Notes under the pieces: model-generated
What the model saw: only the letters and a program-made list of their open reading frames with translations
Database searches by the model: none
What the model was told of the DNA's origin: nothing
Program-made: the position numbers and the translations under genes
Source of the DNA: an uncultured Pelagibacteraceae bacterium
GTDB taxonomy: Bacteria > Pseudomonadota > Alphaproteobacteria > Pelagibacterales > Pelagibacteraceae
Length of the DNA stretch: 64,000 bases
Reading direction: 5' to 3'
NCBI GenBank assembly: GCA_902555535.1
Contig: CACDTB010000001.1
Coordinates: 1-64,000 of the forward strand
Shown: piece after piece, positions 356 to 52,296 of the stretch
Numbering within the stretch: the stretch's first letter is position 1
Layout of the letters: each line of letters opens with the position of its first letter

Positions 356-1071
356 AGAGGCTAGGTGTAAATATAGATCATATTGCAACTTTACGAAACG
401 CTCGTGGAGAGAAACACCCTGATCCAATAAATGCAGCTAAAAAAGTTATTAGTTATGGAGCTGATTCTGTAACAATTCATTTAAGAGAAGATAGAAGACA
501 TATAAATGATATTGACGCCAAAAAAATATGTGGATTAAAAAATGTGCTTGTAAACCTTGAAATTTCTATGAATAAAGAAATTGTTAATAAAGCGCTTAAA
601 ATAAAACCAAATTTTATTTGTTTAGTTCCAGAAAATCGAAAAGAAATTACTACTGAGGGAGGTTTAAATATAAAAAAAAATCATAATAAATTAGAGAAAA
701 TAATTAAAAAATTTAAAAAAGCGAAGATAAGAACAAGTTTATTCATCAATCCTTCTTCAAAAGACATAAGACTTGCTAAAAAATTAAATGCTGATTGTAT
801 TGAAATACATACTGGAAAATTAGCAAACTTAGTTAAATTAAAAAAAAATTATTCTAGTGAATTAAACAGAATTAAAGAAAGTGCAAAATTAGCATCAAGT
901 TTAAATATGGAAGTTCATGCTGGTCATGGTTTAGACTATAAAACTACCAATATGTTAACAAAAATAATAGATATTGAGGAGTATAATATTGGACATTTTA
1001 TAATTGGAGAGTCAATATTTGATGGACTTTCAAAAGTAATTAAAAACTTTAAAAAAATTATAAAAAAATAA
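352..1071 (+). CDS. pdxJ: Pyridoxine 5'-phosphate synthase
   Basis: LGVNIDHIATLRNARGEKHPDP N-terminus and HAGHGLDY motif; GTG start overlapping pyrE stop. Confidence 0.97.
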   Translation: MKRLGVNIDHIATLRNARGEKHPDPINAAKKVISYGADSVTIHLREDRRHINDIDAKKICGLKNVLVNLEISMNKEIVNKALKIKPNFICLVPENRKEITTEGGLNIKKNHNKLEKIIKKFKKAKIRTSLFINPSSKDIRLAKKLNADCIEIHTGKLANLVKLKKNYSSELNRIKESAKLASSLNMEVHAGHGLDYKTTNMLTKIIDIEEYNIGHFIIGESIFDGLSKVIKNFKKIIKK

Positions 1072-1458
1072 ATGAAAATTCTAGGTATTGGTGTTGATAT
1101 TGTTGAAAATAAAAGAATTCAAAAATCGATTAAAAATCCTTTATTTAAAAAAAGAATTTACTCATCTAAAGAATTGAAACAATCTAATGCTGTGAATAAC
1201 AAAGTAGGTTATTTTTCAAAGCGGTTTGCTGCAAAAGAAGCTTTTTCTAAGGCTCTCGGCACAGGTTTTCGTATGAATTTAAATTTTAAAGATATAGAAG
1301 TTATTAATGACAAAATGGGAAAGCCTTATTATGTTAAAAATAAAAAAATTACAAAGATCATTGAAAAAAATTTTAAAATCAAAAATTATAAATGTTTTTT
1401 ATCAATTTCAGATGAAAAAAATTATTCAACTGCATTTGCTATTATTCAAACATCATGA
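1072..1458 (+). CDS. acpS: Holo-[acyl-carrier-protein] synthase
   Basis: GIGVDIVE and RFAAKEAFSKALGTG motifs; downstream of pdxJ. Confidence 0.95.
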   Translation: MKILGIGVDIVENKRIQKSIKNPLFKKRIYSSKELKQSNAVNNKVGYFSKRFAAKEAFSKALGTGFRMNLNFKDIEVINDKMGKPYYVKNKKITKIIEKNFKIKNYKCFLSISDEKNYSTAFAIIQTS

Positions 1459-2192
1459 AATTAGATAAAAATTTCTTTTCAGAGAATATAAAAACTTTAA
1501 TTTATGCATTAATTATTGCTGTTATTATTAGATCTCTTTTATTGCAACCATTTTATATTCCATCTTCATCCATGGAACCTACCTTATTAGTAGGTGATAG
1601 ATTGTTTGTAACTAAATATACCTATGGTTATAGCAAACATTCATTTCCTTTTAGTCCACCAATATTAAAGAATAGAATTTTATTTACTAGTCCAGAAAGA
1701 GGTGATGTAATTGTATTTAAAACTCCAGCAGATAACAGAACAGATTACATAAAAAGATTAATTGGTTTGCCTGGTGATAAAATTCAGTTTATAGACTCAA
1801 ATTTATATTTAAATAATTCTGAAATACTTAAATCTAAAGTTAAAAATAACACTACTATATTCTGTGGAGACAAAAGTATTGATATCTATAGATTTGAAGA
1901 GAAACTTTCTAATGGTAAAAAATTTCATACTGTTTACTTAAAGGATTATACCTACCAAAATTCAGATGTGTTTACTGTACCAAAAGATCATTATTTCTTT
2001 CTCGGTGATAACAGAGATTGTTCTAAAGATAGCAGGTATTTGACAAGTGTCGGATATGTTCATAAAGATAATTTAGTTGGAAAAGCTCAATTTATATTTT
2101 TTTCCTCTGACAAAAAAAAAGGAAGCTTCATTGAATTTTGGAAGTGGCATAAATCAATAAGATTTAATAGAACTTTTAATAAAATTGATTAA
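1455..2192 (+). CDS. lepB: Signal peptidase I
   Basis: PSSSMEPTLLVGD and GDNRDCSKDSR catalytic boxes; N-terminal TM. Confidence 0.96.
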   Translation: MKLDKNFFSENIKTLIYALIIAVIIRSLLLQPFYIPSSSMEPTLLVGDRLFVTKYTYGYSKHSFPFSPPILKNRILFTSPERGDVIVFKTPADNRTDYIKRLIGLPGDKIQFIDSNLYLNNSEILKSKVKNNTTIFCGDKSIDIYRFEEKLSNGKKFHTVYLKDYTYQNSDVFTVPKDHYFFLGDNRDCSKDSRYLTSVGYVHKDNLVGKAQFIFFSSDKKKGSFIEFWKWHKSIRFNRTFNKID

Positions 2193-2860
2193 TGAAAATT
2201 AATTATCAAAGTTTGGAAAAAAAAATTGATTTAAAATTTAAAAATAAGGATCTTCTTATCCAAGCTCTTACACATAAAAGTTTCAACCCGAACGAAAACA
2301 ATGAAAAAATAGAGTTTCTGGGTGATAGAGTTCTTGGATTAGTGATTGCAAAAAAACTTTTAGAAATTTATCCAAAGGAAAAAGAAGGTATACTTGATAA
2401 AAAATTTGCTTCACTAGTTAATAAAAAAACATGCCTAGATATAGCAAAAAAAATCGATTTAGCTAGTTATGTGAAAACATTTAATCCTAATAATAAAAAA
2501 ATAAAAATTGAGGACAAAATTATATCTGATAGTTGTGAAGCATTAATTGGTGCTATTTATCTTGATAAAGGTTTTACATTAGTTGAAAAAACAATTTTAA
2601 ACTTATGGCAAGATCATATTGAAAAAAGTGTAGTTACAGAAATAGATGCAAAAACAAAGTTACAGGAATTAACTTTAAAAAACTTTAAAAAATTACCTAT
2701 TTATAAATTAATTTCAAATACAGGACCAAGACACAAACCCATATTTAAAGTTGGAGTAAAATTGCCCAATACAAAATATTTTATAGCTACTGGAAAATCA
2801 AAGAAAGAAGCTGAACAAAATGCTGCTATAGAATGTTTGAAAAATACAAATAAAAAATGA
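2192..2860 (+). CDS. rnc: Ribonuclease III
   Basis: NEKIEFLGDRVLGLVIA signature, C-terminal dsRBD. Confidence 0.96.
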   Translation: MKINYQSLEKKIDLKFKNKDLLIQALTHKSFNPNENNEKIEFLGDRVLGLVIAKKLLEIYPKEKEGILDKKFASLVNKKTCLDIAKKIDLASYVKTFNPNNKKIKIEDKIISDSCEALIGAIYLDKGFTLVEKTILNLWQDHIEKSVVTEIDAKTKLQELTLKNFKKLPIYKLISNTGPRHKPIFKVGVKLPNTKYFIATGKSKKEAEQNAAIECLKNTNKK

Positions 2861-3537
2861 ATTGGTCAGACGAAGGATTTTTAATAAGCAAAAATAGATA
2901 TAATGAAAATTCATTAATTGCTGAATTATTTACAAAAGACAAAGGAAAGATATCTGGAATTATATTTGGTGGTACTTCAAAAAAAATTAAAAATTATCTT
3001 CAGCTTGGTAATAAACTCCATGTTAATTACAATTCTAAAAATGAAAACAGAATAGGTTATTTTAAAATTGAAATTTTAAATGCCTATACCCCATTATATT
3101 TCGATCATAAGCAAAAGTTATCCTGTATTACATCTGCTATGAATTTGATCAAAATATTAACAGCAGAGTCTCAATCTAACGATAAAGTTTATTTTATAAT
3201 TCAAAATTTATTTTTAATTTTAAAAGAAAAAGATTGGATAAAAAAATATATATTTTGGGAATTGGAGTTACTTAAAATATTAGGATATGACTTGGCGCTT
3301 GAAAATTTAGTTGAAAAAGATTTAGAAGGTAACAAAACTGTATATTATGCAAGTTCTTTAAATGAAAAAAAATATGTACCTAATTTTTTGATTGAAAAAG
3401 ATATAGAAGTTAATGATCTTGGCACTTTATTGAACGGTTTGAAATTAGTAGGCGATTATTTGGATAAAACTATATTAAGACCAAATAATTTAAATTATCC
3501 AAATAGTAGGTTGTTATTCTTAAATACGTTAAAATAA
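2857..3537 (+). CDS. recO: DNA repair protein RecO
   Basis: N-terminal OB-fold WSDEGFLISKNRYNENSLIAELFTKDKG; follows rnc. Confidence 0.85.
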   Translation: MNWSDEGFLISKNRYNENSLIAELFTKDKGKISGIIFGGTSKKIKNYLQLGNKLHVNYNSKNENRIGYFKIEILNAYTPLYFDHKQKLSCITSAMNLIKILTAESQSNDKVYFIIQNLFLILKEKDWIKKYIFWELELLKILGYDLALENLVEKDLEGNKTVYYASSLNEKKYVPNFLIEKDIEVNDLGTLLNGLKLVGDYLDKTILRPNNLNYPNSRLLFLNTLK

Positions 3538-4527
3538 TTATTTTATTATTTTATCAATTCTATCAGCGTAATAACTTACTATAGCATTGGCACCAGCCCT
3601 CTTAAAAGCAACTAAGCTTTCATATACAGCATCTTTATTAATTAATTTTTTTGTTATAGCTGTTTCAATTAAACTGTATTCTCCTGATACTTGATAGGTA
3701 AATACAGGTAATTTAAATTTTTCTTTAATAGATTTTATTATGTCTAAGTAGGGCATACCTGGTTTAACCATTACCATATCAGCACCTTCTTTAATATCTA
3801 ATGCGACTTCTCTTAAAGCTTCATCAGAATTTCTATAATCCATCTGATAAGTTTTTTTGTCACCTTTTAAAGAACCTTTAGATCCGACTGCATCTCTAAA
3901 AGGTCCATAAAAGCTTGAAGCATATTTTGCAGCGTACGATAATATTTGAACGTTTTGGAATTTATTTTTATCTAAAGCTTTTCTTATTTTTCCTATTCTG
4001 CCATCCATCATGTCTGAAGGAGCCAGTACATCACAACCCATCTCAGCTTGTAGTAATGACTGATTGATTAAAACCTCAATTGTTTCGTCATTTAATATAG
4101 TGTTAGACTTTATCAAACCATCATGACCATGTGATGTGTAAGGATCTAAAGCAACATCGCACATTATACCGATTTGGTTTTTGTATCTTTTTTTGACTTC
4201 TTGTATCGCTTTACAAACTAAATTATTTTCATTCAGTGATTCTGTTCCCAATTCGTCCTTTTTTGAGTTTTGTGTCTTTGGGAAAAGAGCTATCATTGGT
4301 ATTCCTAATTTTATTGCTTTATCCACAATTTGGGTCAATCGATTAATTGTATACCTATAAACTCCTGGCATTGATGAAATCTCTTGCCGTTTATTTGAAC
4401 CTTCAATTAAAAAAATAGGTAGTATAAAGTCATTTGGACTTAAGGTATTTTCTTGAATCAATCTTCTTGACCAAGATTCTCTTCTACTTCTTCTGAGTCT
4501 AAGACTAGGATATTTACCAATAATCAT
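3538..4527 (-). CDS. hemB: Delta-aminolevulinic acid dehydratase (porphobilinogen synthase)
   Basis: Full-length similarity; GADMVMVKPGMPYLD and YQVSGEYSLI motifs. Confidence 0.96.
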   Translation of the reverse strand: MIIGKYPSLRLRRSRRESWSRRLIQENTLSPNDFILPIFLIEGSNKRQEISSMPGVYRYTINRLTQIVDKAIKLGIPMIALFPKTQNSKKDELGTESLNENNLVCKAIQEVKKRYKNQIGIMCDVALDPYTSHGHDGLIKSNTILNDETIEVLINQSLLQAEMGCDVLAPSDMMDGRIGKIRKALDKNKFQNVQILSYAAKYASSFYGPFRDAVGSKGSLKGDKKTYQMDYRNSDEALREVALDIKEGADMVMVKPGMPYLDIIKSIKEKFKLPVFTYQVSGEYSLIETAITKKLINKDAVYESLVAFKRAGANAIVSYYADRIDKIIK

Positions 4528-4600
4528 GTTTTAATTTACTTTTAAATTGCGACAAATGTAATATACACATATACAAAAAAAAGGGTAGAAAGCAATCAAG

Positions 4601-5239
4601 ATGACGATAGAAAATTCAAAAGTTATAGACTTAAATATAAAAAAAGAAGAGAGAGTTTTAGACTTTAGCGACTTTCAGAAGCAAGATATCAAATTTGATA
4701 TAGAAAAATTACAAGAGGCTTATCAACAAATAGTTAAAATTAAAAAATTTGAAGATGCTGGTGTAACACACTTTGGAGCGATATCATTAACTCAAATACC
4801 TGGTGACCCAGACTCAATTAAAGGTAACAAGGCTAGAGGAGTATATTGGACAAAACCTGATAAATCAGGAAAAGAAGTAACAAGAGATGAGACACTTGAT
4901 GAGTCATTATATTCAGAATTTATAAAAGATTATGATAATACTTATTTCAAAGAAGTATATGACACTCTTTCATCTAGATATAAACTTGGTAGAGTAAGAA
5001 TTCTTTTAAAAGAGCCAAGATCAACTTTAAGCTGGCATAGAGATCCTGAGCCGAGATTACATATACCTTTAATTACTAATCCTGGCTGCATCATGGTTAT
5101 TGATAACGTTGCGAAACATATGCCTGCTGATGGTTCTGTTTGGATTACAAATAATACCAAGTATCACAATGCATTTAATGGTGGAGAAGAGAATAGAATA
5201 CATTTAGTTGCTTGTGTTTTAGATTACAAATTTAATTAA
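4601..5239 (+). CDS. Aspartyl/asparaginyl beta-hydroxylase-like 2OG-Fe(II) oxygenase
   Basis: WHRDPEPRLHIPL and KYHNAFNGGEENRIHLV, typical HxD...H / RxHLV pattern. Confidence 0.7.
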   Translation: MTIENSKVIDLNIKKEERVLDFSDFQKQDIKFDIEKLQEAYQQIVKIKKFEDAGVTHFGAISLTQIPGDPDSIKGNKARGVYWTKPDKSGKEVTRDETLDESLYSEFIKDYDNTYFKEVYDTLSSRYKLGRVRILLKEPRSTLSWHRDPEPRLHIPLITNPGCIMVIDNVAKHMPADGSVWITNNTKYHNAFNGGEENRIHLVACVLDYKFN

Positions 5240-5240
5240 T

Positions 5241-5666
5241 TTGAAAAAAATATTTATTTCATCAGATCACGCTGGATTTAAATTAAAAGAGATAATTAAA
5301 AATTATTTAAAAAATAAAAAAGTTAAATTTGAGGACCTAGGTCCAAAAGATGACAGTAGTGTTGATTATCCTGACTATGCTCATAAAGTTGCTAGAAAAG
5401 TCAAATCAAGCAAGAGTAATGTTGGTATTTTAGTGTGTGGATCTGGGACTGGTATGAATATTGCGGCAAATAAGCATAAAAAAATTCGCGCAGCTCAATG
5501 TTTTAATCTAAAATCAACGAAATTATCGAGATTGCATAACGATGCAAACATCATTACATTAGGATCCAGGTTGATAACCAAAAAAAATGCTTTAAAGTTT
5601 GTAAGTGTTTTTTTAAATACAAAATTTGATGGTGGTAGACACTTGAGAAGGGTTAAGAAAATATAA
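5241..5666 (+). CDS. rpiB: Ribose-5-phosphate isomerase B
   Basis: [40 protein letters not shown] start. Confidence 0.93.
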
Positions 5667-5668
5667 TT

Positions 5669-6976
5669 ATGTCGAGCGAAAAAAGTTATTTAAATGATAG
5701 TTATAAAAGTTTTTTTGAGGATAGTTTATCTGTAAAAGATCCAGAGCTTTATAAAGCTATTAAAGATGAGTTAATCAGACAACAACAACATATTGAGCTA
5801 ATTGCGTCTGAAAATATAGTATCTCAAGCAGTATTAGAGGCGCAAGGATCGGTTTTAACTAATAAATATGCCGAAGGTTATCCTGGTAAAAGATATTATA
5901 ATGGATGCGAACACGTTGATGTGGCTGAAAATCTTGCTATTGAAAGATTAAAAAAATTATTCAATTGTAAATTTGCAAATGCACAACCACACTCAGGAGC
6001 TCAAGCTAATGGAGCAGTATTTTTAGCTTTGTTAAGCCCAGGTGATACATTCATGGGTATGAGTTTAAATTCAGGTGGCCATATTACTCATGGATTAAAA
6101 ATTTCAATGTCTGGCAAATGGTTTAACGCTATAGGTTATGATGTAGACAAAGAATCTGAGTTGATAGATTATGATAATGTTGAAAAACTTGCTTTAGAAC
6201 ATAAACCTAAACTAATCATTGCAGGTGGAAGTGCTTATTCTAGAGTAATTGACTTTAAAAGATTTAGAGAGATAGCAGATAAAGTTGGAGCTTACTTAAT
6301 GGTTGATATGGCTCACTTCTCAGGATTAGTTGCTGGTAAAGGATATCCTAACCCTTGTGATTATGCACATGTAGTTACTTCAACAACTCACAAAGTATTT
6401 AGAAGCGCAAGAGGAGGAATAATTTTAACTAATCATGAAGATCTTGCTAAAAAATTTAATACAGCTGTTTTTCCTGGTTACCAAGGGGGACCTTTAATGC
6501 ATATTATTGCTGCAAAAGCAGCTGGTTTTCTTGAAGCGCTACAACCAGAATTTCAAGATTATATTAAATCTGTTTTAGCAAACGCAAAAATGTTGGCAGA
6601 AACTTTAAAAAATAATGGATTTAAAATTTATTCAGATGGAACAGACACACATTTGATGTTGGTTGATTTGAGACCTTACAACGTAAAAGGAAATCTTGCG
6701 GCAGAGAGTTTGTCTAGAGCAAATATTACATGTAATAAAAATGGCATTCCATTTGATACAGAAAAACCTATGATTACTTCAGGCATTAGACTGGGTACGC
6801 AAGCAGCTACAACACGAGGATTTGGTTTAAATGAATTTAAAACAGTAGGTGAATTGATTACGAAAACTCTAAAGGGATTATCAGAAAATCCAACAGATAA
6901 TAGTAAAATAGAAGATGAAGTAAAAAATGAAGTTATTTCTTTAACTTCATCATTTCCGATATATAAGAACTTATAA
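5669..6976 (+). CDS. glyA: Serine hydroxymethyltransferase
   Basis: [31 protein letters not shown]-lysine motif. Confidence 0.98.
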
Positions 6977-26395: not shown

Positions 26396-27349
26396 ATGAA
26401 TGAACTTACAACAGACCTAAAATCGCTTCATGAGGCAACCTTAAATAACCTTAAAAGCTCAAAGGCAAATAATACTTTAAGAGCTTATAAATCTGACTTT
26501 AAAGATTTCGGAGCCTTTTGTGCAAAGCATGGATTAAATGCACTGCCAACAGAACCAAAAATAGTTTCCTTGTATCTAACTCATCTCTCAAAAAACTCAA
26601 AAATAAGCACTTTAAGACGAAGATTAGTATCAATAAGCATGGTTCATAGGCTTAAAGGGCATTATCTTGACACAAAACATCCAATCATCGTTGAAAATTT
26701 AATGGGAATAAGAAGGGTCAAAGGAAGTATTCAGAAAGGTAAAAAACCTATATTAATCAATCATTTAAAATTAATTATTAATGTAATTAATGAACAAAAA
26801 ACTGAAGAAATAAAAAAACATAGAGACAAATCAATAATCTTAATTGGCTTTGGAGGAGGCTTTAGAAGAACTGAGCTCATTTCAATTGATCATGAGGATT
26901 TAGAATTTGTTCCTGAGGGTCTAAAAATCACTATTAAAAGATCAAAAACTGATCAATTCGGAGAAGGAATGACCAAAGGACTGCCCTATTTCGAAAATGA
27001 AATTTACTGTCCTGTTACAAATCTAAAAAAATGGTTAGAAATTTCAAGAATTAAGTCTGGACCTATTTTTAGAAGATTTTCTAAAGGTTTATCATTAACA
27101 GACAAACGATTAACTGACCAATCTGTAGTTTTATTAATGAAGGAGTATTTAAAGTTAGCAGGTATCGAAAACAAAAATTTTGCAGGTCATAGTTTAAGGT
27201 CGGGTTTTGCAACAGTAGCTGCTGATTCAGGCGCTGATGAGCGAAGCATAATGGCTATGACAGGTCATAAAACAACACAAATGGTTAGAAGATATATTAG
27301 AGAGGCTAATTTATTTAAAAACAATGCATTAACTAAAATTAAATTTTAA
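26396..27349 (+). CDS. Tyrosine recombinase/integrase
   Basis: GGGFRRTELISI, HSLRSGFATVAADSGADERSIMAMTGHKTTQMVRRYI (R..HxxR..H..Y). Confidence 0.93.
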   Translation: MNELTTDLKSLHEATLNNLKSSKANNTLRAYKSDFKDFGAFCAKHGLNALPTEPKIVSLYLTHLSKNSKISTLRRRLVSISMVHRLKGHYLDTKHPIIVENLMGIRRVKGSIQKGKKPILINHLKLIINVINEQKTEEIKKHRDKSIILIGFGGGFRRTELISIDHEDLEFVPEGLKITIKRSKTDQFGEGMTKGLPYFENEIYCPVTNLKKWLEISRIKSGPIFRRFSKGLSLTDKRLTDQSVVLLMKEYLKLAGIENKNFAGHSLRSGFATVAADSGADERSIMAMTGHKTTQMVRRYIREANLFKNNALTKIKF

Positions 27350-47100: not shown

Positions 47101-47186
47101 AGGAAATTTTGGTTACTGTAATTAATAAGTTTATTAGACTATTTTATGGTTGAATTAAATAATTATAATTATAAAACCTTGCTCAC

Positions 47187-47225
47187 GGAGAGATGGCTGA
47201 GTGGTTGAAAGCACCGGTCTTGAAA
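47187..47225 (+). pseudogene. Truncated tRNA-Ser 5' fragment
   Basis: ggagagatggctgagtggttgaaagcaccggtcttgaaa identical to the intact tRNA-Ser at 52207, then diverges in the anticodon region. Confidence 0.93.
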
Positions 47226-47342: not shown

Positions 47343-47364
47343 ACTTGAAGTAAACTTGAAGTAA
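47343..47364 (+). repeat. Tandem 11-bp repeat (acttgaagtaa)x2, left end of island
   Basis: Read directly; matches 52111-52132 at 20/22 positions. Confidence 0.85.
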
Positions 47365-47379
47365 ATTATGTTTTTATTT

Positions 47380-47766
47380 TTATTTTTTTTTGAAATAATT
47401 AATTTTTATCCATCGAATATAATACCAACTATAAATTGCAAAAATTGGAATTAGTATAAAACTTAAGTACTTCATGATACCAGCAAAAGCCCACACCATA
47501 GGTTGAACTCTTAATTCAGCATCAATACAATTAGATAATTTTTCATCTTCTGTTCCTGTACGACCAAAATAATTATTTTTTTTACAATACTCAGTTAAAA
47601 AACCAATCTCATCTCCTGATGTATAAAATGGTGATTTTACATATTCGTGATTTTGATAAGTATTTCTTCCTAAAATTTCATTCACTGCCCAAATAGAAGT
47701 AAATAATCCTGGTAAAAATATTAATAAAAAAAATATGGTTAAAATAAATGTTTTAATAATTTTCAT
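47380..47766 (-). CDS. Small membrane protein (island gene 3)
   Basis: 128 aa with N- and C-terminal TM segments; same orientation, 23 bp after gene 2. Confidence 0.65.
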   Translation of the reverse strand: MKIIKTFILTIFFLLIFLPGLFTSIWAVNEILGRNTYQNHEYVKSPFYTSGDEIGFLTEYCKKNNYFGRTGTEDEKLSNCIDAELRVQPMVWAFAGIMKYLSFILIPIFAIYSWYYIRWIKINYFKKK

Positions 47767-47789: not shown

Positions 47790-50030
47790 TCATTCTGCTG
47801 ACCCAAAATAATATCTTGCATTCACAAACTGTCTTTTAGAAACTGCAATTCTATGCTTTAAATTAATATTTTTAATATTTTCATCTAAATCATTATTTTC
47901 ATTAAAAAAATCTTTGTATATTTTTTCCGAGGTCAAATTTATCTTATCTTTACAGAGATAACTGTTGAAATAATATAATTTAAATTTTTTAGACAATATT
48001 TTAAATAGTGAATCGTAATAATAAAAAGAAAAAGCTAGATTTAATTCTTTATTAACAAAATCCATAAAATATGTAACGCTGACAACATCAAAACTAGTAA
48101 ATAAATAATCTAATTTTTCAGATATTAAGTTTATATCGCACATATCCAAACTTTTTTGATAATTAAACCATAACTTAGGTCCAATTCTCATAACTTTACC
48201 TTCATTAAGTAGTTGTTCAGCATGTAAGCTAACTATTGAGGATATATCTGAACCAACGTTTAACATTTTAACTATTTTTGATTCATGAATTGCTTCTTCT
48301 GATTTATTAATAATTTTAAGTATATTTTGCTTCTGTGTTATGTACTTAAAATTTTTCTCTAGACTAATAGTATCTACACTTGATTTACCGTTCCAATAAA
48401 TTCCCTGTTCTTTTCCATATATTTTTACTAAAGCTCTTAATTCATAAAAATCAATATCTATACCTTTAAGCAATTGTCTTGTTTTGATTGAATTAAAAAC
48501 TTCAATTAATTTAAGTGTTTTTAATTTTTTATTCTCAAAGATTTTAATTATTGTGTCTAAAATTATTTTATTTTCTTGTTTAAATCTTAGGTATTTCAAA
48601 TGTTTGTGGGTTCCTTTTGCTGATAACCATAAATTTTGATTTGAATTAATTTTGTAATCAGCAACCAAACGTTTCATGGAAAAGGAATTTTTACTTGGTG
48701 AATTGTTTAGTATTTCATAAATATCTTTCCAATAAATTCCTTTTGGAAACTTAAGCACTATGTGTGATATTTCTTCAGTTGCATTTAACTTAAGTGGGAA
48801 AATTTTATTTTTTTCATGATGAATTAATTTTTCATCATCCATGAATTTTAAAGCACTCTTAGCCACATCATTATCAAAGCCAAACAATGATTTTAATTCT
48901 AATTTAAAAATTTCCTCATCTATACCAAATGGTAATTCTAAGAATATTTCGTTTAATAATTGAGGGTCAAAATCTTTCTTTAATAAAAGCTCTGGAGTTT
49001 TATAATGATCATAATCAACATTGGTTAGATCTGCAAGAAATTGGGTAAGTCTATCACCTGTTATGTCTTTTGATCTATTTTTAACTGTATCTGTAAAAAA
49101 ATCGTCAAGTAATTCAAATTTTTGATGAAAACCAATGCTTTGAATGTTTATTAAGTAATTTTTTAATTCTGTATTGTTAAACAACGAATTTAATCTTACC
49201 TTATTTTTTATAATGAGGATTAATTGTCTAACTCTTTCCCTTGTTAATCTTTTTTTATTTTCAATTTTAAATAATTCGTCAGCTGTACCTTCTAAGGTTA
49301 AGACTTTAGTTTTGTAACCATAATAAGTAGAAAATATAAATTTTTCTCTTTCATTCAATTTCTCTAATATATAATCAATATTCTCAATAATTTTTTTCTC
49401 AATTAAACTTGGGTCTGTATCATTTGTAATTTCAATATCTCTTGATTCCTTTGAATTAATTAATTCGTTTATAGCATCAGGATTACTGTATTGATGGATT
49501 AGTTCAATTGTTTTGGCTCCAATTGACCGCTGATTTCGACAATCAGTTAAAAGTTCTTCTGTGAGTAAATCCTTAATTTTTATTTTTCTCTCAAGCTTAT
49601 TTTCAATTCGTCTTAGCGATTTTTGTTCATTACTATTTAATAAATAAAAAATAAGATTATTTTCTTTATGTTCTTCATAGTTATTAATTTCAGATGTATT
49701 AATCGATCTAATATGTTTACTTGACTGATAAACATTATTATTTTTCCAACTTTGATAGCTACTTACTTCGTTTTCAAAAAAAAGACTTAATTTATATGAT
49801 TTTCCATATAATTCATTAAATCTTGTAATTAGTTCATCAATTTCAAAAATGAACTTATGTTTAAAACTATTTAATTTACCAAGATCTGATTTTTTAATTT
49901 TAATTAGTTCTCCCAATGTTTTGATTTGATTCACAGAAAAAAAATTACTTAGATCATCGGATAAACTTAAAATATCTAAATTAGTAGATAGTAAATTATT
50001 TAAAATTTGATCATCACTGTTTTGCATCAA
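47790..50030 (-). CDS. Large protein with RNAP-alphaCTD-like HhH and sigma-70 region-4-like HTH (island gene 2)
   Basis: IKTLGELIKIKKSDLGKLNSFKHKFIFEIDEL (alphaCTD-like); LNEREKFIFSTYYGYKTKVLTLEGTADELFKIENKKRLTRERVRQLI (sigma r4-like). Confidence 0.75.
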   Translation of the reverse strand: MMQNSDDQILNNLLSTNLDILSLSDDLSNFFSVNQIKTLGELIKIKKSDLGKLNSFKHKFIFEIDELITRFNELYGKSYKLSLFFENEVSSYQSWKNNNVYQSSKHIRSINTSEINNYEEHKENNLIFYLLNSNEQKSLRRIENKLERKIKIKDLLTEELLTDCRNQRSIGAKTIELIHQYSNPDAINELINSKESRDIEITNDTDPSLIEKKIIENIDYILEKLNEREKFIFSTYYGYKTKVLTLEGTADELFKIENKKRLTRERVRQLILIIKNKVRLNSLFNNTELKNYLINIQSIGFHQKFELLDDFFTDTVKNRSKDITGDRLTQFLADLTNVDYDHYKTPELLLKKDFDPQLLNEIFLELPFGIDEEIFKLELKSLFGFDNDVAKSALKFMDDEKLIHHEKNKIFPLKLNATEEISHIVLKFPKGIYWKDIYEILNNSPSKNSFSMKRLVADYKINSNQNLWLSAKGTHKHLKYLRFKQENKIILDTIIKIFENKKLKTLKLIEVFNSIKTRQLLKGIDIDFYELRALVKIYGKEQGIYWNGKSSVDTISLEKNFKYITQKQNILKIINKSEEAIHESKIVKMLNVGSDISSIVSLHAEQLLNEGKVMRIGPKLWFNYQKSLDMCDINLISEKLDYLFTSFDVVSVTYFMDFVNKELNLAFSFYYYDSLFKILSKKFKLYYFNSYLCKDKINLTSEKIYKDFFNENNDLDENIKNINLKHRIAVSKRQFVNARYYFGSAE

Positions 50031-52068
50031 AAGTTATTATTAATTGTTTTTTTAGTTTATTAAATTCTTTGTAAGATCTTCCAACTCCATAATTATTGTG
50101 AATAAAATTAAAATCAAGTAAAGGTAAATTATTAAAAGTATTGTTTTCGTTGATAGTTTGAAAGGATGGAATTATTCCAGTTTCGTTATAAAATTTTTTG
50201 CAATACATCAAAAATTTATCAATAAAATATTTTTCATTTACTTCTCTCTCAAAAGGTAGCGCTGTATTGCAATATCTGTAATAAGAGCCAAAAAGTGTAT
50301 TGATTTGATCGGAGGAAATATTATTTAAGTTATCTTCAAGATTTTCAATCTTTGGAATTTCTTCATATTTCTCATAGTAACTTCTTAATACTGACACAGC
50401 CTCCTCTAATTCTAATAAATTATATTTTTGATCTTCTAATAATTTTAAAACTTGTGCCGCTCCTTTAAAATTCCAATTAACCTGCATCGATGAATCATAA
50501 TGTTTTTCTGATAAATTATTTGAATCTTTCTCGATATTTATATTTGGGTTAATATTCGATTTATCTATAACCTGTTCCTCGTAGGCTTTTTGAAATGATT
50601 TAACTTCATTAATTCTTGATACCGATCCTACAAAATCAAATACATCAACAAATTCTTTTTTATTAGTCCTTCTTAATCCTCTGCCTAATTGTTGTAACCA
50701 AATCAATTTAGAGTTTGTAGTTCTTAAGAATGCTAACAGGTTAGTTTCTGGAATATCAATTCCCTCATTAAATAGATTACAGGTAAGTATATATCTGTAA
50801 TTACCTTCTCTAAATTCTCTTATATTATTTCTTCTTTGATCTCCGTCCATACCATTAGAATAAGCATATGTTGCTTTACCTGGTGGAAAATATTTTATTA
50901 AATGTTTTATGTGTTTTATGTTACGACAAAAAACAATTGCTTTACAATTTTCAATGGTTTCTGCTTTTTTTTCTAAAGCCTGAACCATTTTTTCATCTTT
51001 TTCTTTTATAAATAAACTTCTATCCAGATCATCTAAAGTAAAACCTTTTTCTAAAGCATCTATTTTTTGCTGACTTACGTCATGTCCATGTACTTGATAT
51101 TTGGGGAAAGCTAACCATCGATGCTTTAAAGCCCAGTAAAGATCATACCTACCCATATGACCTTCTTTACCACCAAAATAATTTAGAACATCTCTATTAT
51201 CAGTTCTAAATGGTGTTGCTGTTAAGCCTATCAAAAGTTTTGGATTAAAATGTTTGACAACTTTAGAATAGGTATTTGCAGGTACATGATGGGCTTCATC
51301 GACAACTATAATATCAAAATCCTCTTTACTAAAATTTTTCAAATTTGAATAAATTGTATCAAATACACCAAACATAAAATCTGTTTTATCTTCTGGTGTA
51401 TAACCTGCTACTGCGCCAGAGAAAGAATAATTTCCTATTCCAAAAATATTTTTAAAAGAAATAACAGTTTGTGTTAATATTTCTATTTGATGAGCTAAAA
51501 ATAATATTTTTAACTTTTTTTCTTTAAGTAATTCTTTAATAATAAAAGCTACAGTATATGTTTTCCCTAAACCTGTTGCTAACTCTATTAAAATTTTTTT
51601 TTTATTATTTTTTGTAAATTCATTAATGCATTGATTTACAATATCCATTTGATATGGATGAGGTTTAATTTTTTTACCAATTTCACTTGTATTTAATTCA
51701 AATAAATCTTTAAGTTTATTTCTGTCAATTAAATCAACACCTAGTTTAAAAGCTCTATATTCAACTTCGGAAGTAAAATATGTATTTGTAACTAAAATCT
51801 GATTTTTTACATTAGCTAACTTGCCTCCTGTAATTAATTGATTTAAATCCTCTACAGTACATTTATTGGTTATTTTTCTATGTTTACATTCAATCGCAAA
51901 TTTTTTTTTATCTTTTGTACAAAAAATATCTACACCTCCATCCCCATGTCTATATTCTGATCCTACTTTAGTTACTTCTACATTATCCCAACCTGATTTT
52001 TCAAATAATTGAGCTACAAATAATTCAAAATCACTTTTGCTTAGATTGTCTATGTCTACAAATTTCAT
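50014..52068 (-). CDS. Mrr-like restriction endonuclease domain fused to SF2 DEAD/DEAH helicase (island gene 1)
   Basis: N-term GDGGVDIFCTKDKKKFAIECKHR; helicase ELATGLGKTYT, VDEAHH, GLTATPFR, QQLGRGLRR. Confidence 0.92.
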   Translation of the reverse strand: MKFVDIDNLSKSDFELFVAQLFEKSGWDNVEVTKVGSEYRHGDGGVDIFCTKDKKKFAIECKHRKITNKCTVEDLNQLITGGKLANVKNQILVTNTYFTSEVEYRAFKLGVDLIDRNKLKDLFELNTSEIGKKIKPHPYQMDIVNQCINEFTKNNKKKILIELATGLGKTYTVAFIIKELLKEKKLKILFLAHQIEILTQTVISFKNIFGIGNYSFSGAVAGYTPEDKTDFMFGVFDTIYSNLKNFSKEDFDIIVVDEAHHVPANTYSKVVKHFNPKLLIGLTATPFRTDNRDVLNYFGGKEGHMGRYDLYWALKHRWLAFPKYQVHGHDVSQQKIDALEKGFTLDDLDRSLFIKEKDEKMVQALEKKAETIENCKAIVFCRNIKHIKHLIKYFPPGKATYAYSNGMDGDQRRNNIREFREGNYRYILTCNLFNEGIDIPETNLLAFLRTTNSKLIWLQQLGRGLRRTNKKEFVDVFDFVGSVSRINEVKSFQKAYEEQVIDKSNINPNINIEKDSNNLSEKHYDSSMQVNWNFKGAAQVLKLLEDQKYNLLELEEAVSVLRSYYEKYEEIPKIENLEDNLNNISSDQINTLFGSYYRYCNTALPFEREVNEKYFIDKFLMYCKKFYNETGIIPSFQTINENNTFNNLPLLDFNFIHNNYGVGRSYKEFNKLKKQLIITFDAKQ

Positions 52069-52110: not shown

Positions 52111-52132
52111 ACTTGAAGCAAACTTGAAGCAA
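52111..52132 (+). repeat. Tandem 11-bp repeat (acttgaagcaa)x2, right end of island
   Basis: Read directly; 43 bp upstream of the helicase start. Confidence 0.85.
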
Positions 52133-52206
52133 AACGAAAACTTTATGAAAAAAATGACCTGTTTTTTAGTTGAATTTTACAATTATACTTATAAAACGGT
52201 GCTCAC

Positions 52207-52296
52207 GGAGAGATGGCTGAGTGGTTGAAAGCACCGGTCTTGAAAACCGGCAAAGGGGCAACTCTTTCCTGGGTTCGAATCCCAGTCTCTCCGCCA
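52207..52296 (+). tRNA. tRNA-Ser (UGA)
   Basis: ggagagatggctgag...ccggtcttgaaaaccgg...gggttcgaatcccagtctctccgcca, long variable arm. Confidence 0.97.

What the first reader, a model, noticed from the sequence alone, without database searches (positions are those of the whole stretch)
50014..52068. Mrr-nuclease/SF2-helicase as first gene of a candidate defence operon on an island
The 684-aa protein combines an N-terminal Mrr-like PD-(D/E)xK nuclease (GVDIFCTKDKKKFAIECK) with a complete DEAD/DEAH SF2 helicase and an uncharacterised C-terminal extension. It heads a three-gene leftward operon and overlaps the second gene by 17 bp. Nuclease-helicase fusions on tRNA-associated islands are typical of anti-phage systems. 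No methyltransferase lies beside it, so this is not an ordinary type I/III restriction system. In a streamlined genome such cargo implies selection.
Basis: partly seen in the sequence, partly recalled or inferred. Interest (0 to 1): 0.85.

Follow-up and report, generated by a model that had tools for sequence, protein, structure and literature searches.

The report
Mobile two-gene nuclease-helicase defence candidate
An ocean bacterium of the SAR11 group carries, in a small DNA cassette inserted at a tRNA gene, a DNA-cutting motor protein with a fast-changing DNA-binding partner; the same two genes sit side by side in unrelated bacteria from E. coli to planctomycetes, often among virus-defence genes, so this looks like an uncharacterised immune system.

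Summary
The gene at 50014-52068 encodes an Mrr-type nuclease joined to a complete SF2 helicase, with every catalytic residue intact. Its 746-aa partner carries RNA-polymerase-like parts (alpha-CTD-like, sigma region 4) and a predicted row of winged helices. The two genes form a conserved module. In all seven related loci whose contig runs on past an intact helicase (SAR11, Acinetobacter, Lelliottia, Beggiatoa-like, Sulfuricellaceae, Phycisphaerae), and in E. coli, a partner homologue follows directly. The helicase is conserved (48-66% between genera) and the partner diverges fast (19-43%). Both are under purifying selection. Neighbours elsewhere include an Azaca system, AbiE and a Tn7-like transposon.

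In the window the pair sits on a ~5.0-kb tRNA-Ser island with an 87-bp direct repeat, paired inner 22-bp repeats and an intact empty site in 26 relatives. It carries no integrase and is rare (2 of 398 genomes of the order). The third gene is independent cargo.

No PADLOC, Pfam, NCBIfam or PHROGs model describes the pair; it is not ApsAB. Most likely it is a methyltransferase-free, ATP-dependent restriction-like immune system: the partner finds the target, the helicase-nuclease translocates and cuts. Activity is untested; newer defence catalogues could not be searched.

The parts
50014..52068 (-). Helicase-nuclease: N-terminal Mrr PD-(D/E)xK domain (1-123), SF2 helicase (133-490), fast-evolving C-terminal extension (491-684)
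   Evidence: Pfam; invariant catalytic residues across homologues; closest solved structure by sequence is 7clg 'putative helicase', E 1.3e-53
47790..50030 (-). Partner: alpha-CTD-like N-terminus (about 7-78), sigma-70 region 4-like HTH (about 207-280), then a row of predicted winged-helix units to the C-terminus; likely DNA-recognition or loading subunit
   Evidence: PDB RpoA hit 2.4e-4; family profile against sigma factors in the PDB, best 3.6e-10; Sigma70_r4 in 8 of 8 members; AlphaFold2 model, mean pLDDT 69, about 86-93 over 601-700
47380..47766 (-). 128-aa small predicted membrane protein; island cargo, not part of the conserved pair
   Evidence: Not among the L006 ORFs; homologue next to tRNA-Leu, unlinked to the pair, in G004
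47139..47225 (+). Left end (attL-like): copy of the tRNA-Ser 5' half plus its upstream sequence, ending in the anticodon loop
   Evidence: 87-nt direct repeat with 52159-52245, 90%; last 39 nt identical to the tRNA-Ser start
52159..52245 (+). Right end (attR-like): upstream sequence and 5' half of the intact tRNA-Ser
   Evidence: upstream part resembles L006 rather than the empty sites
52207..52296 (+). tRNA-Ser (TGA), intact target gene
   Evidence: ARAGORN; directly beside rarD in 26 relatives
47343..47364 (+). Inner left repeat ACTTGAAGTAAACTTGAAGTAA, possible recombinase arm-type site
   Evidence: only two matches in the own genome assembly, none in 100 relatives; 0 expected in shuffled window
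52111..52132 (+). Inner right repeat ACTTGAAGCAAACTTGAAGCAA, possible recombinase arm-type site

Best explanation
The pair is a mobile two-gene, ATP-dependent, restriction-like immune module without a methyltransferase. The partner binds DNA through its sigma-4/alpha-CTD-like and winged-helix units and recognises the target or a feature of it. It hands the DNA to the Mrr-helicase, which translocates by ATP hydrolysis and cuts with the Mrr domain. Shown here: the domains, intact catalytic residues, constant pairing and order, fast divergence of the partner, purifying selection on both genes, defence and mobile-element neighbours elsewhere, and insertion at a tRNA gene. Inferred: physical complex, DNA recognition by the partner, translocation, cleavage, immunity. 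How it spares host DNA is not known; recognition of modified or structurally unusual foreign DNA is the most economical guess because no methyltransferase travels with it.
For: Constant pairing: partner homologue directly after the helicase in L006, L008, L009, L011, L013, L015 and L007 (partner cut by the contig end), and in E. coli L004/L005; L010 and L012 end at or within the helicase, and L014 is decayed. Genes overlap or nearly abut. Catalytic residues invariant. Asymmetric divergence: helicase 48-66%, partner 19-43% between genera, the close E. coli-Lelliottia pair (98/98) aside. dN/dS 0.105 and 0.135 (E. coli vs Lelliottia), 0.157 and 0.220 (window vs L006) for helicase and partner. Neighbours: Azaca ZacABC just upstream in L007, AbiE in L015, Tn7-like TnsA/TnsB/TniQ in L010 and TIR plus methyltransferase near the decayed copy in L014. 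Sporadic: 2 of 398 genomes of the order, 72 of 5426 E. coli genomes with a near-complete copy. The helicase is closest to SauUSI-type modification-dependent restriction models (PADLOC mREase_IV 1.1e-47). A sigma-like protein also occurs in a PLD-helicase DNA-modification-type locus (L072).
Against: No functional data. Few diverse homologues (about ten), found from the helicase side with a seed of two paired helicases. Part of the partner is only weakly characterised: in the window protein the Sigma70_r4 match alone is below Pfam's cut-off, and L006 lacks the N-terminal alpha-CTD-like part. Several loci (L008, L011, L013) show no recognised defence gene beside the pair in the ORFs looked at.
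Confidence: 0.6

Rival explanations
1. Anti-plasmid rather than anti-phage system, working like ApsAB or DdmDE: helicase-nuclease plus a recognition protein that destabilises plasmids.
For: Same logic of helicase-nuclease plus DNA-recognising partner; ApsAB removed plasmids but gave no protection against eight phages (PMC11096173).
Against: No membership by architecture: ApsA homologues are over 1100 aa with a C-terminal nuclease, and ApsB is Argonaute-like with a MID motif; here the nuclease is N-terminal in a 684-aa protein and the partner is sigma/winged-helix. Nothing here separates phage from plasmid targets.
Confidence: 0.25
2. The sigma-like partner is only a transcription regulator of the operon, and the helicase-nuclease acts alone as a SauUSI-like type IV enzyme.
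For: Sigma region 4 and alpha-CTD are transcription parts; the helicase has nuclease and motor in one chain, as SauUSI does.
Against: An auto-regulator is usually small; this one is 662-836 aa, follows the helicase directly, has a long predicted winged-helix array and diverges faster than the enzyme.
Confidence: 0.15
3. DNA repair or housekeeping helicase (RadD/XPB-like) carried by chance on islands.
For: RadD and XPB are significant relatives of the motor.
Against: Very sporadic distribution, mobile settings, fused nuclease and co-travelling partner; RadD NCBIfam score 116.8 against a cut-off of 720.
Confidence: 0.07
4. The pair serves the mobile element itself (excision, replication or transfer) rather than host immunity.
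For: It fills most of a tRNA island with paired inner repeats and no integrase.
Against: The same pair sits in different kinds of element and site: Tn7-like transposon, ydeT-hip region of E. coli, beside tRNA-Val in Acinetobacter, beside Azaca; a mobility module would be expected to keep one element type.
Confidence: 0.08

Closest known systems
[quoted passage not shown] PADLOC mREase_IV)
   Same: Nuclease plus SF2 helicase in one chain, ATP-dependent, no methyltransferase; best helicase-level relative (that 7clg is SauUSI is from memory)
   Different: SauUSI has an N-terminal PLD nuclease and acts as one polypeptide (PMC3874153); here the nuclease is Mrr-type and a second large gene follows
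ApsAB (PMC11096173)
   Same: Two-gene operon of helicase-nuclease plus nucleic-acid-recognising partner in E. coli islands
   Different: ApsA over 1100 aa with C-terminal nuclease; ApsB Argonaute-like
PbeABCD / CxC-type DNA-modification-linked systems
   Same: Nuclease-SF2 helicase; PbeA models hit the helicase; a sigma-like HTH protein occurs in one locus of this look (L072)
   Different: PLD/HKD-type nuclease, ABC ATPase and methyltransferase there, absent here
MZA system (MzaA sigma-like protein)
   Same: Sigma-70 region 4-like protein in a defence operon; weak hit of the E. coli partner, 1.2e-4
   Different: Only the sigma segment aligns; no other Mza gene here
Type II BREX PglW
   Same: alpha-CTD-like domain followed by several winged helices (PMC12839542)
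   Different: No kinase or NERD domain here; hit 0.035, not significant
Tycheposons and other tRNA-linked islands of streamlined marine bacteria
   Same: Cargo at a tRNA gene, direct repeat of tRNA sequence
   Different: No tyrosine recombinase in the island; about 5 kb (definition from PMC10872708)

Membership tests
Type I / type III restriction-modification | Methyltransferase (and specificity) subunit encoded with the helicase-nuclease | tested here: not met
   Island holds only the helicase, partner and a 128-aa protein
SauUSI-type type IV enzyme | PLD nuclease domain at the N-terminus | tested here: not met
   Mrr_cat at 6-122, no PLD match
SauUSI-type type IV enzyme | ATP-dependent cleavage of modified DNA | not testable with these tools
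   Needs biochemistry
ApsAB | ApsA over 1100 aa with C-terminal PD-(D/E)xK | tested here: not met
   684 aa with N-terminal nuclease; paper's definition
ApsAB | ApsB with Y-K-Q-K MID-like motif | not tested
   The motif was not searched in the partner
Hachiman | HamA nuclease plus HamB helicase | tested here: not met
   No Ham model among the 25 best hits of the window helicase; HamB only 0.003 for the E. coli homologue; none for the partner
MZA | Full-length MzaA with the other Mza genes | tested here: not met
   MzaA 0.077, 11.8 bits against a cut-off of 800; no further genes in the island
Any system in PADLOC-DB 2.0 | Models covering both genes | tested here: not met
   The window partner has no significant hit; helicase hits cover the motor or the nuclease part
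tRNA-integrated genomic island | Direct repeat from the tRNA gene at both ends and an empty site in relatives | tested here: met
Tycheposon | Tyrosine recombinase carried by the element | tested here: not met
   Only one phage-integrase-family match in the own genome, at 26780-27307, outside the island; genome about 69% complete

The most novel reading that the evidence does not exclude
An undescribed class of immune system in which a sigma-factor/alpha-CTD-like protein, built from transcription-initiation parts, directs an Mrr-helicase to foreign DNA, for example by recognising promoter-like or modified sequences, and which spreads as non-autonomous cassettes through streamlined ocean bacteria.
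Probability: 0.3. Interest if true: 0.85.

Novelty: new variant of a known kind. Interest (0 to 1): 0.6.

Why it matters
SAR11 bacteria are among the most abundant cells in the ocean and have tiny genomes; what protects them from their abundant phages is largely open. A compact two-gene system that E. coli shares can be tested in ordinary laboratory strains. If the sigma-like partner steers a nuclease, it would be a case of transcription-initiation modules reused for immune recognition.

Tried and rejected
ApsAB looked right by description but its architecture differs. The partner-based scan of genome contigs found nothing, probably because the partner diverges too fast; the helicase-based scan worked. 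The first viral-contig scan gave no relative, and two later attempts with the profile got no answer from the server, so viral carriage is untested beyond the phage records (helicase hits all under 60% identity and none over 80% of the query; no partner). Distant Mrr-helicases on plasmids (Rhodococcus, Deinococcus, Ruegeria) sit with an ATP-binding protein and a cytosine methyltransferase: a different system. Foldseek of the partner against the PDB gave only weak matches, several of them tandem winged-helix proteins, best E 0.02. A second AlphaFold job on the Acinetobacter partner did not finish. Promoter-like matches were at the chance level (39 found, 39.1 expected) and no terminator-like site was found. 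A search of 369 genomes of another class of the phylum gave no full-length helicase. Paper searches found no description of the pair, but bioRxiv and most subscription journals are not held.

Full report
What is there. The ORF at 50014-52068 (-) encodes 684 aa: an Mrr_cat domain (6-122), a ResIII/DEAD motor (133-288) and Helicase_C (362-466). Across the aligned relatives D47, E60, K62, GLGKT, DEAH, TAT and QQLGRGLR do not vary, so the protein looks catalytically intact. The C-terminal extension is the fast part: 26-36% identical to homologues outside SAR11, against 55-63% for the other segments. The next gene, 47790-50030 (-), 746 aa, has almost no family match on its own. Its N-terminus matches the RNA polymerase alpha C-terminal domain (PDB 8dkc, 2.4e-4). 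A profile of its relatives matches sigma region 4 in many sigma-factor structures (best 3.6e-10), and all eight members hit Sigma70_r4 (best 1.2e-9). AlphaFold2 (mean pLDDT 69, pTM 0.36) gives helical units, the sigma-4 helices at about 207-280 and then repeated helix-helix-strand-strand units to the C-terminus, with good confidence only locally. Foldseek found only weak matches, several of them tandem winged-helix proteins.

The pair is conserved. A tblastn of the partner found an annotated 'sigma factor-like helix-turn-helix' protein on enterobacterial plasmids, there without the helicase, next to an IS1. On E. coli chromosomes the same gene lies 1 bp after a 'DEAD/DEAH box helicase', downstream of ydeT and, in one strain shown, near hipBA. 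That helicase is 51% identical to the window's over 658 aa; the partner is 25% identical over 402 aa. A scan of GTDB species genomes with the two helicases found eleven loci: one Pelagibacteraceae single-cell genome (76%), two Acinetobacter, a Parabeggiatoa, a Sulfuricellaceae, a Pseudomonadales, a Labilibaculum, a Lelliottia, a decayed Halobeggiatoa copy, a Phycisphaerae, and one weak hit not counted. Wherever the contig runs on past an intact helicase, the next gene is a partner homologue (L006, L007, L008, L009, L011, L013, L015). L010 and L012 end at or inside the helicase. This survey was seeded from helicases known to have partners, so helicases without one could be under-sampled.

Evolution. 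Between genera the helicase keeps 48-66% identity and the partner 19-43%, the close E. coli-Lelliottia pair (98/98) aside. The L006 partner lacks the N-terminal alpha-CTD-like stretch. dN/dS is well below 1 for both: 0.105 and 0.135 for E. coli vs Lelliottia, 0.157 and 0.220 for window vs L006, where synonymous sites are near saturation. A stable enzyme with a fast-changing DNA-binding partner fits a recognition role for the partner, but this is inference.

Setting elsewhere. In A. brisouii the helicase starts 150 bp after ZacC of an Azaca system. In L015 an AbiE pair lies upstream. L010 has TnsA, a Mu-type transposase and TniQ upstream, a Tn7-like setting. L014's remnant lies near a TIR protein and a methyltransferase. 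In Acinetobacter L011 the helicase follows a tRNA-Val. In E. coli 105 of 5426 genomes show a trace and 72 a near-complete copy; several are interrupted by insertion sequences.

The island. In 26 of 29 same-genus relatives whose rarD locus was fetched, rarD is followed within about 70-95 bp by tRNA-Ser, then sdh5 and recG. In the window about 5.0 kb lies between. Its left end repeats the 87 bp that cover the tRNA upstream region and the tRNA 5' half, ending in the anticodon loop. The upstream part of the left copy matches the empty sites and that of the right copy resembles L006, so the 5' half of the present tRNA was probably brought by the element. A 22-bp tandem motif lies just inside each end and nowhere else in the assembly or in 100 relatives, as recombinase arm sites would. 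No integrase lies in the island; the only phage-integrase-family match in the assembly is at 26780-27307. L006 carries the pair at the same site, without the left tRNA copy, the inner repeats or the 128-aa gene. G019 has other cargo there, so the site is used repeatedly.

Interpretation. The helicase is nearest in profile to the SauUSI group of modification-dependent enzymes (PDB 7clg), but has an Mrr nuclease in place of PLD. No methyltransferase travels with the pair. I therefore favour a restriction-like system whose self/non-self decision lies in what the partner recognises. Anti-plasmid action is a serious rival. The sigma/alpha-CTD resemblance could also mean regulation, but a large, directly following, fast-evolving protein in every locus argues for a working subunit. 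A locus in Aurantiacibacter pairs a sigma-like protein (alpha-CTD 1.3e-10, sigma-4 3.8e-11) with a PLD-helicase and a methyltransferase, which suggests that sigma-like proteins recur beside helicase-nucleases.

Limits. No experiment exists for this pair in the material searched. PADLOC is the 2023 version; DefenseFinder and bioRxiv were not available. The own genome is about 69% complete. Two viral-contig scans failed for technical reasons.

Noticed in passing
L074 (E. coli C, NZ_CP020543): E. coli C carries a broken copy of the pair: the helicase is split by ISSen4 and the partner is cut short next to an ISEc52 remnant.
   Followed up: partly
L060 (G019), 3882-5629: The same tRNA-Ser/rarD site holds a nucleotidyltransferase-like and an epimerase-like gene in another SAR11 genome, so the site is an integration hotspot.
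   Followed up: partly
L061 (G021): rarD is followed by trypsin-like and caspase-like genes, and no tRNA-Ser was found in the 3.9-kb locus around rarD (L030); the site is rearranged or filled differently.
   Followed up: no
L077 (G004), 4379-4774: A homologue of the window's 128-aa island gene sits next to a tRNA-Leu among other small secreted or membrane protein genes, away from the helicase pair.
   Followed up: partly
L072 (Aurantiacibacter plasmid), 559-6591: PLD-type helicase, ABC-type ATPase, DNA-modification-associated small protein and methyltransferase next to a sigma-like protein: a second pairing of sigma-like proteins with helicase-nucleases.
   Followed up: partly
L069, L070, L071 (plasmids): Shorter Mrr-helicases next to an ATP-binding protein (GHKL-type in L069) and, nearby, a cytosine methyltransferase; a separate helicase-nuclease system.
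   Followed up: partly
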